Of a DNA stretch of 64,000 bases, positions 3 through 4,821 are shown one piece after another. The DNA lies in assembly GCA_030447905.1 (NCBI GenBank), contig JAUJNZ010000001.1, forward strand, positions 20,199 to 84,198. The letters are read 5' to 3'. The first letter of the stretch is position 1. Each line of letters begins with the position of its first letter. This DNA comes from Thermoleophilaceae bacterium (lineage in GTDB: Bacteria > Actinomycetota > Thermoleophilia > Solirubrobacterales > Thermoleophilaceae). Below the pieces are notes generated by a model. That model did not search any database, was not told the DNA's origin, and was given only the letters and a program-made list of their open reading frames with translations. The translations under genes were made by a program, and so were the position numbers.

Positions 3-1268
3 AGCGGAGCAGAGACACGCCCGGGCCTCACGCGCCTGGTCCACGAGATCGATGACGTCGAGCTCGGGGAGGAGACCGGGCTCGAGGGAGGACGGCTCAC
101 GGTCTCGGCGGAGGAGGCCCAAGGGCTCGTCGCGGACCCTGCGCTGGCCGAGGTGTCCGTGTCGTGGGTCAGCCCGGGCGAATCCGCACGGATCGTCAAG
201 GTGCTGGACGCGGTCGAGCCACGGGCGAAGGGAGACGGCGCAGGCGGCGTCTTTCCGGGCTTTCTCTCGCCCGCTCGCCCGGTGGGCCTCGGCACGACGC
301 ACGTCCTGCGTGGCGCCGCGGTCGTCGCCGCCGGCTACCTCCCGCGCGCCCAGGAGTCCGTCGTGGAGATGTCGGGAGAGGCCGCACAGCTCTCCCCGCT
401 CGGCTCGACGCACAACCTCGTCGTCGAGTTCGAGCCTAGCTCCGACGCGTCCTGGGAGGACGTGGACACGGCGCTCAGGCGCGGGCTCCTCAAGCTCGCC
501 GTCCGCCTCGCCGAAGCGGCGCTCGAGGCAGATCCCACTGCGGTGGAGGAGCTTCCGGCCGCCCCGGCGCAGGCGCAGGACGACCGTCCGCGGGTGGCGG
601 CGATCACCAACCTCCAGACCCAGGGCACCTTCAAGGACGTGTTCGTCTACGGCAGCAGCATGGCGGGGTCGCTGCCGACGCTGATCGATCCGAACGAGCT
701 CGAGGACGGCGCGGTGGTGAGCGGCCAGTACGGCCACCCCGGGCTCAAGAACCCGACCTACATCCACCAGAACCATCCCGTGGCGGCGGCGCTGCGAGCG
801 AGCGAGGAGGCCGAGCTCGGGGGCGTGATCATCTGCCCCGAGCCGGTCGACCAGGCGCAGAAGGAACTGGTGTCCGCGCTGGCCGCACGCCTGTGCAAGA
901 CCTGCGGCTTCGACGCCGCGATCGTGACCAAGGAGGGCGGCGGCAACGCCGACGCGGACATCGCCCTGAAGGTCGACGCGCTCGAGGAGATCGGCATTCC
1001 CGCGGTGGGGCTGTTCGCGGAGATGGCGGGGAGGGAGGGCACCGCCCCGCCGCTCGTCGCTCCCCCCACCAAGGCCACGGCCATGGTGAGCACCGGCAAC
1101 TACGACGAGGAGCTCGAGCTCGGTGAGGTCGAGCGCGCGCTCGGTGGCGAGCGGATCGACCTGCGCGACGTGGACGCCCACGAGGCGATGGAGATTCCGC
1201 ATGCGGCGATCTACTGCGCGCTGAACCCGCTTGGCTGGGGGCGCTTGACCTGCGAGGATGCCACCTGA
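3..1268 (+). CDS. grdE: Glycine/sarcosine/betaine reductase component B, GrdE/GrdG-like proprotein (5' partial)
   Basis: The reading frame is open at the window edge, so the first few residues are missing. In the Grd family this protein supplies the alpha and beta subunits of substrate-binding component B and, in clostridia, self-cleaves at an Asn-Cys bond to make a pyruvoyl group. Family features visible here are the N-terminal LARGE-subunit-like block ending in LDAVEPRAK, the KNPTYIHQNHPV block, the KEGGGNADAD block and the VSTGNYDE block. At the expected cleavage site, VSG-Asn-Cys of the clostridial proteins (from memory), this protein has VSG-Gln-Tyr (positions 726-731). If that alignment is right it cannot form the Cys-derived pyruvoyl cofactor. 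Its TGA overlaps the grdB ATG by one base, so the genes are translationally coupled. Family assignment is firm; substrate is unknown. Confidence 0.85.
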   Translation, partial: SGAETRPGLTRLVHEIDDVELGEETGLEGGRLTVSAEEAQGLVADPALAEVSVSWVSPGESARIVKVLDAVEPRAKGDGAGGVFPGFLSPARPVGLGTTHVLRGAAVVAAGYLPRAQESVVEMSGEAAQLSPLGSTHNLVVEFEPSSDASWEDVDTALRRGLLKLAVRLAEAALEADPTAVEELPAAPAQAQDDRPRVAAITNLQTQGTFKDVFVYGSSMAGSLPTLIDPNELEDGAVVSGQYGHPGLKNPTYIHQNHPVAAALRASEEAELGGVIICPEPVDQAQKELVSALAARLCKTCGFDAAIVTKEGGGNADADIALKVDALEEIGIPAVGLFAEMAGREGTAPPLVAPPTKATAMVSTGNYDEELELGEVERALGGERIDLRDVDAHEAMEIPHAAIYCALNPLGWGRLTCEDAT

Positions 1269-2520
1269 TGCGCATCGTCCACTACATCAACCAGTACTTC
1301 GCCGGGGTCGGCGGCGAGGAGGAGGCCGGCCGAGGACCGGAGCTGCGCGAGGAGGCTGTCGGCCCCGGGAAGCGGCTCCAGTCCCTTATCGGCGACGAGC
1401 ACGAGATCGTCGCGACGGTCTTCTGCGGCGACGACTACGCGGCCGGGACGGCCGAGGCTGCCGAGGAGATCCTCTCCCTGACCGATGACCACGACCCGGA
1501 GCTTGTCGTGGCCGGCCCGGCCTTCACCAGCGGTCGCTACGGCGTCGCCTGCTCGGCCGTGGTCGCCGCGGCGCACGAGCGCGGCCTCAAGGCGATCGCC
1601 TCGATGCACGAGGACAACCCGGGCCTCCAGGACGCGGGCGCCGCGCCCGTCATCGAGAGCGGCGAGAGCGCGCGGAGGATGAAGGGCACGATCGAGCGCC
1701 TGGCGGCCGCGGTCCAGAAGCTCGCCGCCGGCGAGCACCTCGGAGAGGAGGACGGGCGCATCTCGCGGCCGCGGCGGGTCAACGTGCTCGCCGACGCTCC
1801 CGCCGCCGCGCGCGCTGTCGAGCTCGTGCTTGCCCGCCTGGGCGGCGACACCGAGCGCACCGAGCTCAGACCGCCCGACTTCGACCAGGTGACGCCGGCG
1901 GGCCCGGTCGAGGACCTCTCGGAAGCGAGCGTCGCCCTGGTCACCGAGGGGGGGCTGGTCCCCGCCGGCAACCCCGACGGGCTCGAGTCCTCGCGCGCCA
2001 CGCTCTGGCTTCGCTATTCGCTCGAGGGGCGCGACTCGCTCCCCGAGGGGGAGTTCGAGTCGGTCGACGGCGGCTTCTCCACCGAGGCGGCGAACGAGGA
2101 TCCGGACCGCATGGTGCCGCTGGACGTGGCCCGCGAGCTCGAGCAGGAGGGCGCGATCGGACGCCTGCACCCCGAGTACCTGGTGACGACGGGCAACGGC
2201 ACCGCCGTGGCCTCGGCCAAGCACTTCGGCGTCGAGTGGGCCGTGGAGCTGCACAAGGCGGAGGTCCAGGCGGCGATCCTGACGGCGCCGGGATCCCCAC
2301 CGTCGTCCTGAGCAACCTGGTCTCGATCGCAGAGCGGGTGGGTGCCCCGCGGATCGTTCGTACGCGGGGGATTCCCTTCCCTACGGGCGATCCCTCGCTC
2401 GACTCCGAGGAAGAGCGCGAGTGGCGGCGACAGCTGATCGACAAGGCGCTCGAGGCGCTCTCGACCAGCGTCTCGGGGCCGACGGTATTCGATCCGGCGG
2501 GCGAGGCGCAGCCCGCGTGA
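1268..2520 (+). pseudogene. grdB: Reductase component B selenoprotein subunit GrdB, disrupted at the expected Sec site
   Basis: The first frame begins MRIVHYINQYFAGVGGEEEA, a typical GrdB/GrdF/GrdH start, and runs to about 2287, ending AILTA. The C-terminal part resumes in another frame at about 2287 (AGIPTVVLSNLVSI) and ends at TGA 2518-2520. In canonical GrdB the intervening block is roughly 18 residues with Sec followed by a Cys-rich TRCGATM-type stretch and KEIER. That block, with its UGA and SECIS, is absent here. The frame change needs a loss of 1 mod 3 bases, consistent with about 52-55 missing bases. The break sits near codon 340, where Sec is expected (about 350). Either the gene is dead or the assembly has lost a hairpin-forming segment. 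The flanking protein is well preserved. Confidence 0.8.
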
Positions 2521-2553: not shown

Positions 2554-4008
2554 ATGGGCAGTGACCTGAGCGAGCAGGGGGCGGTGGTCTCGCAGGCGAG
2601 GCAGGTCCTCGCCCACGCCCCCGGCATGGTCCGCCACGGATCGAAGCCCGCGCGGGAGCTTGACTCGGATCCCGACCTCGCCGAGCCGCTGTTCGGAAGC
2701 CTCCGCACCTTCGAGGAGGCGGTGGCCTACCCGCCCAACCAGGCGTTTCTGGGCGCCCTCCATCCGCGCGAGCTCCCCGAGCGCCCGTGGACGTCGGCGA
2801 GCGCGGACGGCGCCGAGCGCTTCACCGCTCACGGCGAGCACATGCCGGAGGAGGAGCTCCTCGGGCTGATGGCCGCGGTCGACGAGTTCGAGCTCCTGAC
2901 CCTGGGAGAGGAGCTTTCCGAGCGGGCCGCCTCAGCGCTCGGCCGGCACCCGCTCGCGGAGAGCCTCGACCTCGACCGCCTCGCTGCGGTGACCGGCGAC
3001 GCCGAGGAGGCCGCCGAGCGGCCCGGCTCGCTGCCGCTCCACCTCGGCGGCGACCACCTGGTGGGAGCGGTCCACCGCGCCGACGAGGAGGATGCCTCCC
3101 TCGCGGCGTACGTGCTGCTCGAGAACCTGGCGGCGAAGGCCACCGCCACGCTGGCGCTCCATCATCTGGTGCGAGGGGCGGGGGTCGATCCCGGCTCGAT
3201 CGACTACGTGATCGGCTGCGGCGAGGAGGCCATCGGCGATCGCTACCAGCGCGGCGGTGGGAACCTGGGCAAGAGCGTGGCCGCGGCGGCAGGACTGGGG
3301 AACGCCTCGGGCGCCGACGTGAAGAACTTCTGCGCCGCGCCCATCGTGGCCCTGGCGACGGCCGCCAGCCTGGTGAGCGCCGGGGTGTTCGAGCGCGTCG
3401 CGGTGGTGGCCGGCGGCTCGCTCGCGAAGCTCGGCATGAAGTTCCAGGGCCACCTGAAGCACGAGATGCCCGTGCTCGAGGACGTGCTCGGCGGCGCCGC
3501 CGCGCTCGTGGAGCGCGACGACGGCGGCTCGCCGCGCATCAGGCTCGACGCGGTCGGCCGCCACACGGTCGACGCCGGCGGCTCGCAGGACCGGATCATG
3601 CAGGCGCTCGCGGTGGAGCCGCTCGAGCGTGTCGGCGTCGACATGCTCGACGTCGACGACTACGCGACCGAGCTCCACAACCCCGAGGTGACCGAGCCGC
3701 AGGGCTCGGGCGACGTCCCCGAGCGCAACTACAAGGTCATCGCCGCCCTGGCGAAGCGCCGCGGCGAGATCGAGGGCGACGACATGGACAGCTTCGTGGC
3801 CGAGCGCGGGATGCCGGGATACTCACCGACCCAGGGCCAGATCGCGTCGGCGGTCTGCTACCTGCCGCACGCCTGCCGGCGGCTCACCGAGGAGGGCGGG
3901 GCCGAGCGAGTGCTGATGCTGGCCAAGGGCAGCCTGTTCCTGGGCCGGATGAGCGAGCTCTCGGACGGCATGAGCGTACTGCTGGAGCGAAACCCGAACG
4001 GAGGTTGA
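2554..4008 (+). CDS. grdC: Glycine/sarcosine/betaine reductase component C, beta subunit GrdC
   Basis: 484 residues with a thiolase/FabH-like fold in the second half. In the family, component C takes the carboxymethyl-selenoether from GrdA and releases acetyl phosphate. Seen here are the core VKNFCAAPIVALATAASL with a probable nucleophile Cys260, the YVIGCGEEAIGDRYQRGGGN block and the MPGYSPTQGQIASAVCYLPH block near the C terminus. The start ATG follows a purine-rich GGGAAGGGG site. The partner alpha subunit GrdD, which normally follows grdC, is not here: the next gene is thioredoxin, one base after the stop. GrdD may lie upstream of the window or be absent, so acetyl phosphate formation cannot be assumed. 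Confidence 0.88.
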   Translation: MGSDLSEQGAVVSQARQVLAHAPGMVRHGSKPARELDSDPDLAEPLFGSLRTFEEAVAYPPNQAFLGALHPRELPERPWTSASADGAERFTAHGEHMPEEELLGLMAAVDEFELLTLGEELSERAASALGRHPLAESLDLDRLAAVTGDAEEAAERPGSLPLHLGGDHLVGAVHRADEEDASLAAYVLLENLAAKATATLALHHLVRGAGVDPGSIDYVIGCGEEAIGDRYQRGGGNLGKSVAAAAGLGNASGADVKNFCAAPIVALATAASLVSAGVFERVAVVAGGSLAKLGMKFQGHLKHEMPVLEDVLGGAAALVERDDGGSPRIRLDAVGRHTVDAGGSQDRIMQALAVEPLERVGVDMLDVDDYATELHNPEVTEPQGSGDVPERNYKVIAALAKRRGEIEGDDMDSFVAERGMPGYSPTQGQIASAVCYLPHACRRLTEEGGAERVLMLAKGSLFLGRMSELSDGMSVLLERNPNGG

Positions 4009-4009
4009 G

Positions 4010-4348
4010 ATGGGAGAGATCGTCGAGGCAGATCGCGACAACTTCTGGGACATCGTCGGGGAGGGCACGGTTCTGGCCGACTTCTGGGGTCCGGACTGCG
4101 AGCCGTGCAAAGCCCTTGACCCCGAGGTCAAGCGCTTGGTCGAGGAGCGGCCGGAGCTGCGCGTGGCTAAGGTAGAGGCACCGAACGCGCGGCGGGTGTC
4201 CATAGACCTCAAGGTGATGGGCCTCCCCACGTTCCTGCTCTTCCGCGACGGAGAGGAGGTGGCTCGGCTGAGCGATCCGGAGCTGACGCCGCCGCAGCTG
4301 GAGGAGTGGCTGAAGGAGAACTACGACCAGCAAGAAGATGGGAGGTGA
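4010..4348 (+). CDS. trxA: Thioredoxin of the glycine-reductase operon
   Basis: 112 residues, a single thioredoxin domain. The active site is DCEPC (Cys30, Cys33) after FWGP, unlike the usual WCGPC; atypical CxPC sites occur in thioredoxins linked to grd operons. The cis-Pro loop is GLPTFLLF. It probably passes electrons from TrxB to the selenoprotein GrdA. The ATG begins one base after the grdC stop, and the grdA ribosome-binding site overlaps this gene's 3' end, so the three are cotranscribed. Confidence 0.88.
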   Translation: MGEIVEADRDNFWDIVGEGTVLADFWGPDCEPCKALDPEVKRLVEERPELRVAKVEAPNARRVSIDLKVMGLPTFLLFRDGEEVARLSDPELTPPQLEEWLKENYDQQEDGR

Positions 4349-4354
4349 GGGAAT

Positions 4355-4821
4355 TTGCTCGAGGGTAAGAAGGTAGTCGCCCTGGGCGAGCGGGACGGCA
4401 TCTCGGGGCCGGCGATCGAGGCGTGCATCGAGGCGGCCGGCGGCGACGTCGTCCTGTCCGCCACCGAGTGCTTCGTCTGAACGGCGTCAGGAGCAATGGA
4501 CCTGGGAAGCCAGGAGAAGATCAAGGACCTCGCCGACGAGCATGATCGAGACAATCTCTTGGTGGTGCTGGGTGCGCCGGACGACGAAGCCGCAGAGATT
4601 GCGGCGGAGACGATCATCTTCGGCGACCCGACCTACGCGGGTGCATTGACGGAGGCCCAGTTGGGTCTCGACGTATACCACGTGCTGGAGGAAGACATAA
4701 GAGCGAGATCCCCGACGACGTCTGGGAGGAACAGGTCGGGGTGATGGCCGACACCTTGGAGGCCCAGGACCTGGCCGAGGCCGTCGGGGGCATGCGCGCC
4801 AAGGACGACGAGGACGCCTAG
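4355..4821 (+). CDS. grdA: Selenoprotein A (GrdA) with in-frame UGA (Sec42) and a late 1-base frameshift
   Basis: Starts at TTG 4355, nine bases after a GGAGG site. The N-terminal half matches GrdA: GKKVVALGERDG, then SATECFV followed by TGA at 4478-4480, giving the C-x-x-U redox motif (Cys39, Sec42). Translation continues in frame through AMDLGSQEKIKDLADEHD and GDPTYAGALTEAQLGLDVYH. At about 4697-4701 one base is missing (ATAAGAGC where ATAAAGAGC would keep the frame). The conserved tail SEIPDDVWEEQVG resumes in another frame and ends at TAG 4819-4821. GrdA is the carrier protein that takes the carboxymethyl group as a selenoether. The frameshift may be a sequencing error at an A-run, or a real lesion matching the damaged grdB. 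Confidence 0.82.
4478..4511 (+). promoter_or_regulatory. Bacterial SECIS-like hairpin after the grdA UGA codon
   Basis: Directly after the UGA there is an outer stem GGC (4483-4485) / GCC (4509-4511) and an inner stem CAGG (4488-4491) / CCTG (4501-4504), closed by the nine-base loop AGCAATGGA. Position and size match bacterial SECIS elements, which lie within the coding sequence just 3' of UGA and are bound by SelB. The coding sense (TASGAMDLGSQ) is also the conserved GrdA sequence, so both constraints act here. No folding energy was computed. Confidence 0.6.

What the first reader, a model, noticed from the sequence alone, without database searches (positions are those of the whole stretch)
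723..740. GrdE homologue lacks the Asn-Cys pair expected at the pyruvoyl self-cleavage site
In clostridial GrdE/GrdG the precursor cleaves at Asn-Cys inside a GDAIVSGNC-type segment followed by a K-N-x-T-Y block, leaving a Cys-derived pyruvoyl group essential for substrate binding. Here the aligned segment reads VVSG-Gln-Tyr-GHPGLKNPTY: flanks conserved, Asn-Cys gone. The protein may bind a different substrate, use different chemistry, or belong to an undescribed actinobacterial branch of Grd-like reductases. The clostridial sequence is recalled, not aligned with a tool.
Basis: partly seen in the sequence, partly recalled or inferred. Interest (0 to 1): 0.78.

Follow-up and report, generated by a model that had tools for sequence, protein, structure and literature searches.

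The report
Actinobacterial GrdE-like protein without pyruvoyl site
Oxygen-breathing soil-type actinobacteria carry a selenium-dependent reductase system related to clostridial glycine reductase, but all 22 sequences of its branch lack the residues that make the pyruvoyl cofactor and none of the 19 genomes checked has the acetyl-phosphate subunit GrdD, so it probably acts on a different, still unknown substrate.

Summary
Window 723-740 encodes G-Q-Y-G-H-P in a full-length PF09338 (GrdE-type) protein, at the columns where glycine and sarcosine reductases have Asn-Cys and D-proline reductase has Thr-Cys. The change is a fixed trait: 22 of 22 related actinobacterial sequences read GQ[YF]GHP and form one clade (100/100 support), and no other Cys is invariant in them. 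The clade lies outside GrdE+GrdG+GrdI. In 21 of 21 complete relatives the partner GrdB keeps selenocysteine but has lost the first Cys of its CxxC (UGTGTRC against UGTCTRC). GrdA and GrdC are present; GrdD is absent from 19 of 19 genomes, against 7 of 7 fermenting controls that have it. All 19 host genomes encode a haem-copper oxidase and SelB. Lack of Asn-Cys is not unprecedented: it is reported for betaine GrdI and fluoroacetate FarE, and I see Ser-Phe in GrdI-type proteins here. Most likely this is a pyruvoyl-independent Sec reductase for an alpha-substituted carboxylate that needs no Schiff base; the substrate is unknown. The window's own grdB lacks 55 nt including the Sec codon, probably an assembly error, because 55 is also the length of exact contig-end overlaps on this scaffold.

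The parts
3..1268 (+). grdE-like gene (PF09338), intact; starts 16 nt upstream of the window
   Evidence: ORF; Pfam 326 bits; upstream sequence in L002
723..740 (+). Gly-Gln-Tyr-Gly-His-Pro at the columns of the Asn-Cys self-cleavage site
   Evidence: codons read; alignments
1268..2520 (+). grdB-like gene (PF07355), in two frames: the junction near 2285-2287 lacks 55 nt, Sec codon included, compared with sister locus L020
   Evidence: likely assembly error
2554..4008 (+). grdC-like gene (protein C beta subunit), passes NF040746; Cys260 invariant, Cys435 found only in this clade
4010..4348 (+). thioredoxin (motif WGPDCEPC)
4355..4744 (+). grdA, selenoprotein A, TGA (Sec) at 4478-4480 in ECFVUTASGAMD; 1-nt frameshift near 4698 compared with L020
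4832..5827 (+). thioredoxin-disulfide reductase
   Evidence: TIGR01292 356 bits, cut-off 343

Best explanation
The protein is the large subunit of a substrate-binding 'protein B' in an actinobacterial reductase related to glycine reductase, and it works without self-cleavage and without a pyruvoyl group. Proposed mechanism: the substrate is an acetate-type carboxylate with a leaving group on the alpha carbon that needs no Schiff-base activation. It binds at the GrdE/GrdB interface, where the conserved Tyr/Phe stands in place of the cofactor. Sec of GrdB displaces the leaving group, the carboxymethyl group passes to Sec of GrdA (CxxU), thioredoxin and thioredoxin reductase supply electrons, and the acyl group ends on Cys260 of GrdC. 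Because GrdD is missing, the acyl group is released by another route than the known GrdD-dependent acetyl phosphate formation. Shown here: absence of the site, the clade, the operon, the Sec codons, loss of the GrdB CxxC, absence of GrdD, terminal oxidases in the hosts. Inferred: substrate class, the role of the aromatic residue, the release route.
For: Site GQ[YF]GHP in 22 of 22 clade members with no invariant Cys. Single clade at 100/100. Operon order E-B-C-Trx-A conserved across several families. Sec codon with UGTGTRC in GrdB of all 21 complete relatives; CxxU Sec in GrdA. GrdC Cys260 invariant. Trx and TrxR next door. SelB over cut-off in 19 of 19 and tRNA-Sec in 18 of 19 genomes, own genome included; SelD and SelA beside the operon in a Solirubrobacteraceae MAG. 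Precedent: FarE and GrdI work on substrates that cannot form a Schiff base and lack the Cys; FarB lacks CxxC (PMC10838667). GrdI-type GSF proteins were confirmed here through their partner GrdH over cut-off.
Against: No substrate, transporter or regulator gene is conserved next to the operon, so the substrate class rests on analogy alone. Nothing shows that the protein is made or active. Four relatives (L043, L045, L047, L048) have no grdA or trx beside grdEBC. The window's own grdB and grdA reading frames are broken as assembled. The stretch around the site is modelled with low confidence (block mean pLDDT 60).
Confidence: 0.6

Rival explanations
1. It is a betaine (or other quaternary ammonium or sulfonium) reductase, with the Tyr/Phe forming part of an aromatic cage as Phe might in GrdI.
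For: Betaine cannot form a Schiff base; GrdI-type proteins read GSF with Phe at the Cys column; an aromatic residue at this column recurs in most non-pyruvoyl groups.
Against: QY+GrdI as one clade is rejected (p-AU 0.0076); GrdB scores 377-389 against the GrdH cut-off of 775; GrdI partners keep CxxC while this clade lacks it. The flanking genes showed no recurrent neighbour; a betaine transporter was not searched for by profile.
Confidence: 0.15
2. It is a reductive dehalogenase of a haloacetate, like FarBE for fluoroacetate.
For: FarB lacks CxxC and FarE lacks the pyruvoyl Cys, the same pair of absences as here (PMC10838667).
Against: FarE profile score 126.6 against a cut-off of 675; the farA and farC partners (antiporter, radical SAM) were not recognised among the neighbours, though not every neighbour was annotated. 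HAD-fold genes beside grdA in three loci belong to a broad family and are no evidence for dehalogenation.
Confidence: 0.12
3. The system reduces glycine after all, with the pyruvoyl group dispensable or replaced by another carbonyl, for example in GrdB.
For: Some work places a second carbonyl in GrdB and gives the pyruvoyl a maintenance role (PMC9908766); GrdA, GrdC and Trx are those of glycine reductase.
Against: All GrdE- and GrdG-type proteins sampled keep Asn-Cys apart from one Asn-Ser; GrdB scores 383-408 against the glycine-specific cut-off of 602. The Ser of the STUG motif proposed as a carbonyl precursor is Ala (ATUG) in most of this clade.
Confidence: 0.12
4. In this strain the locus is a decaying relic: grdB lost its Sec region and grdA is frameshifted.
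For: 55-nt deletion in grdB and 1-nt deletion in grdA compared with L020 (the 55 nt read and summed over).
Against: 55 nt equals the exact contig-end overlap at three of eight scaffold gaps on this contig, one of them inside grdE, so the deletion is probably an assembly error; grdE differs from L020 mostly at third codon positions (40 against 14 and 12); 21 relatives are intact.
Confidence: 0.15

Closest known systems
GrdE of glycine reductase protein B (Clostridia)
   Same: PF09338 over full length, paired with a Sec GrdB, operon with GrdA, GrdC and thioredoxin
   Different: no Asn-Cys; about 35% identity; no GrdD; partner GrdB without CxxC; hosts with terminal oxidases
GrdI/GrdH of betaine reductase
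   Same: no Asn-Cys, aromatic residue at the Cys column, Sec in the B subunit
   Different: motif GSF-MPC/A; separate clade (p-AU 0.0076 against grouping); GrdH keeps CxxC
FarE/FarB fluoroacetate reductase (Synergistota)
   Same: reported to lack both the pyruvoyl Cys and the GrdB CxxC (PMC10838667)
   Different: 126.6 bits against a cut-off of 675; different neighbours; no FarE sequence could be aligned here
GVY, GAY and GEY groups of PF09338 in other actinobacteria (L003, L004, L017, L018, L095, L096, L098)
   Same: no pyruvoyl site, Sec GrdB with UGTGTRC or UGTSTRC; GrdD not found in those genomes that were checked
   Different: separate branches with other motifs; GrdC keeps Pro at the Cys435 position where seen

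Membership tests
GrdE (glycine reductase protein B, pyruvoyl subunit) | full-length PF09338 match | tested here: met
   326 bits, residues 15-417
GrdE (glycine reductase protein B, pyruvoyl subunit) | Asn-Cys self-cleavage pair | tested here: not met
   Gln-Tyr/Phe in 22 of 22 clade members
GrdE (glycine reductase protein B, pyruvoyl subunit) | groups with known GrdE | tested here: not met
   GrdE+GrdG+GrdI form a clade at 100/98 without it
GrdE (glycine reductase protein B, pyruvoyl subunit) | in vivo cleavage and carbonyl N-terminus | not testable with these tools
   needs protein
Glycine reductase complex | Sec-containing GrdB | tested here: inconclusive
   Sec in 21 of 21 complete relatives; the window copy lacks the stretch
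Glycine reductase complex | UxxCxxC motif of GrdB | tested here: not met
   UGTGTRC in all 21 complete relatives
Glycine reductase complex | Sec GrdA with CxxU | tested here: met
   NF040748 174 bits, cut-off 130; CFVU
Glycine reductase complex | GrdC | tested here: met
   NF040746 559 bits, cut-off 450
Glycine reductase complex | GrdD | tested here: not met
   0 of 19 genomes over cut-off against 7 of 7 fermenters at over 560 bits
GrdI/GrdH betaine reductase | clade with GrdI, GrdH profile | tested here: not met
   p-AU 0.0076; 377-389 bits against 775
GrdG/GrdF sarcosine reductase | NF040793 / NF040794 cut-offs | tested here: not met
   213.8 against 780; 432-448 against 800; these cut-offs are strict, a GrdG-like control also missed them
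FarE fluoroacetate reductase | NF053623 cut-off | tested here: not met
   126.6 against 675
PrdA D-proline reductase | TIGR04480 cut-off and Thr-Cys | tested here: not met
   53.2 against 700; Gln-Tyr at the site

The most novel reading that the evidence does not exclude
A new type of Sec-dependent reductase in aerobic actinobacteria that needs neither the pyruvoyl cofactor nor GrdD. It acts on a substrate not yet known for this family and passes the acyl group from GrdC, perhaps through the clade-specific Cys435 (Pro in other GrdC), to an acceptor other than phosphate.
Probability: 0.35. Interest if true: 0.75.

Novelty: new variant of a known kind. Interest (0 to 1): 0.55.

Why it matters
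Glycine reductase is a textbook enzyme of anaerobic amino acid fermenters, and the role of its pyruvoyl group is still argued over. A whole clade that has both selenoproteins but not the pyruvoyl site, the GrdB CxxC or GrdD, in genomes with terminal oxidases, is a natural experiment. It separates what Sec chemistry needs from what glycine chemistry needs, and it points to an unrecognised selenium-dependent reaction in soil-type actinobacteria.

Tried and rejected
Alternative cleavage site elsewhere in the protein: no invariant Cys in the clade; the invariant Ser/Thr are mostly shared with canonical GrdE. Membership in GrdI, GrdG, FarE or PrdA: rejected by profile scores, and GrdI also by the tree. 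Solved homologues: none by sequence, and no PDB fold match at E 0.001 or better for the AlphaFold model (pLDDT 84). Substrate from neighbours: the only genes conserved across families are grdE, B, C, trx, A; HAD hydrolase, FAD oxidoreductase and prephenate dehydratase genes recur only in small subsets. Bacterial SECIS by folding 40 nt at the UGA: no stronger than shuffles, uninformative. Which state is ancestral (Asn-Cys or aromatic) could not be decided: the PrdA outgroup sits on a branch of 4.9 changes per site.

Full report
Observation. Window bases 723-740 read GGC CAG TAC GGC CAC CCC (G-Q-Y-G-H-P) in frame +3 of an ORF open from the window's first bases to 1268. The gene probably begins with GTG 16 nt upstream, behind a 100-N scaffold gap. 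Pfam places the whole protein in PF09338 (326 bits). It occurs once in the genome.

Alignment. Relatives were collected from the own phylum and class (16 of 396 and 15 of 399 genomes), from named MAGs, from the order of one relative and from the phylum of Candidatus Formimonas (94 of 299 genomes). In 126 non-identical sequences the window's Gln-Tyr falls on Asn-Cys of GrdE and GrdG-like proteins and on Thr-Cys of PrdA. The closely related actinobacterial sequences read GQYGHP (15) or GQFGHP (7) without exception. Outside the pyruvoyl groups the Cys column is usually aromatic: GSF, GNY, GVY, GEY, GAY. No Cys is invariant in the 22 sequences and no candidate for another self-cleavage site was seen. 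I conclude that this protein does not form a Cys-derived pyruvoyl group at this site.

Tree. With the site's columns left out, the 22 sequences form one clade (SH-aLRT 100; 100/100) on a long stem. GrdE, GrdG and GrdI together form a clade at 100/98 without it. Holding the clade together with the GSF group is rejected (p-AU 0.0076). The GSF group is betaine GrdI by its partner: the adjacent B subunits score 819 and 802 bits against the GrdH cut-off of 775. GrdI and the QY clade therefore lack Asn-Cys on separate branches. Whether each lost it or never had it cannot be settled with PrdA as a very distant outgroup.

The rest of the system. Most relatives share the order grdE-grdB-grdC-trx-grdA. 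GrdB has an in-frame TGA (Sec) in all 21 complete relatives, and the motif is UGTGTRC in all of them; glycine, sarcosine and betaine types have UGTCTRC. GrdA has ECFVU or ACFVU. GrdC passes its profile, keeps Cys260 everywhere and has a further Cys435 (CY[LVM]PH) only in this clade, where other GrdC that cover the stretch have Pro. GrdD, the subunit that completes acetyl phosphate formation (own knowledge of the glycine reductase literature), is not found over its cut-off in any of 19 clade genomes; the same search finds it at over 560 bits in 7 of 7 fermenters, and misses it in 7 of 7 other actinobacteria with non-canonical GrdE. SelB is over cut-off in 19 of 19 and tRNA-Sec in 18 of 19 genomes; in the own genome they lie at C1:11038-12105 and C24:158581-158672. 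In Solirubrobacteraceae locus L022, selD and selA lie beside the operon. All 19 genomes encode a haem-copper oxidase subunit I; three fermenting controls do not. The hosts are thus probably aerobes, unlike the classical owners of glycine reductase.

State of the window's own copy. Compared with L020 (95% identical GrdE), the window's grdB lacks 55 nt that include the Sec codon, and grdA lacks 1 nt near 4698. On the same scaffold, 3 of 8 N-gaps are flanked by exact 55-nt overlaps, one of them within grdE itself. That is the pattern of a k=55 assembly, and a loss of exactly 55 nt is most simply an overlap trimmed twice. I hold the grdB break to be probably artificial, but reads would be needed to prove it; the grdA frameshift is not explained by this.

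Prior knowledge. Bednarski et al. 2001 (cited in PMC10838667 and PMC10298544) describe cleavage of GrdE and PrdA; PMC9908766 shows the pyruvoyl groups in C. difficile by mass spectrometry and reports the view that the pyruvoyl in GrdE keeps GrdB active. PMC10838667 states that FarE lacks the cysteines for pyruvoyl formation, as does GrdI, and that FarB lacks CxxC. So a GrdE homologue without the site is known; a clade in aerobic actinobacteria lacking the site, the GrdB CxxC and GrdD was not found in the papers searched. The search covers only the open-licence library.

Mechanism. The parts kept are those that carry the carbon group: Sec of GrdB, Sec of GrdA, Cys260 of GrdC, and the thioredoxin pair. 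The parts missing are those tied to amine activation (pyruvoyl), to protecting or reducing the GrdB Sec (CxxC), and to making acetyl phosphate (GrdD). This fits a substrate whose leaving group is good without a Schiff base, and an acyl product released differently. The steps after GrdA and the substrate are inference. Confidence: no Cys-derived pyruvoyl at this site, about 0.95; working Sec reductase in the clade, about 0.8; different substrate class from glycine and sarcosine, about 0.6.

Noticed in passing
window 2283-2287 (grdB): 55 nt missing compared with L020, removing the Sec codon and shifting the frame; same length as the exact contig-end overlaps at three scaffold gaps of C19. Probably an assembly error.
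   Followed up: yes
window 4698 (grdA): One base fewer than L020 in a short A run (ATAAGAG against ATAAAGAG), frameshifting the last part of GrdA.
   Followed up: partly
L002 12100-12199 (just upstream of window base 1): 100-N scaffold gap inside the 5' end of grdE, with the same 55 nt on both sides.
   Followed up: yes
window 3856-3858 (GrdC residue 435): A Cys invariant in the GrdC of this clade, where other GrdC sequences covering the stretch have Pro; the clade lacks GrdD.
   Followed up: partly
L003, L004, L017, L018, L095, L096, L098, L155-L158, L161, L163: Several further uncharacterised GrdB/GrdE pairs with Sec but no pyruvoyl site, each with its own motif; most, not L155-L158, have Gly or Ser in place of the first Cys of the GrdB CxxC.
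   Followed up: partly
L043, L045, L047, L048: grdEBC without trx and grdA beside it; whether grdA lies elsewhere in these genomes was not tested.
   Followed up: no
L044, L046, L138: HAD-fold hydrolase gene next to grdA in members of two families.
   Followed up: no
L002 2393-9792: By reading only: a molybdopterin oxidoreductase / nitrite reductase-like gene pair, a glutamine synthetase-like gene and a nitrate transporter-like gene upstream of the operon, as in nitrate assimilation.
   Followed up: no
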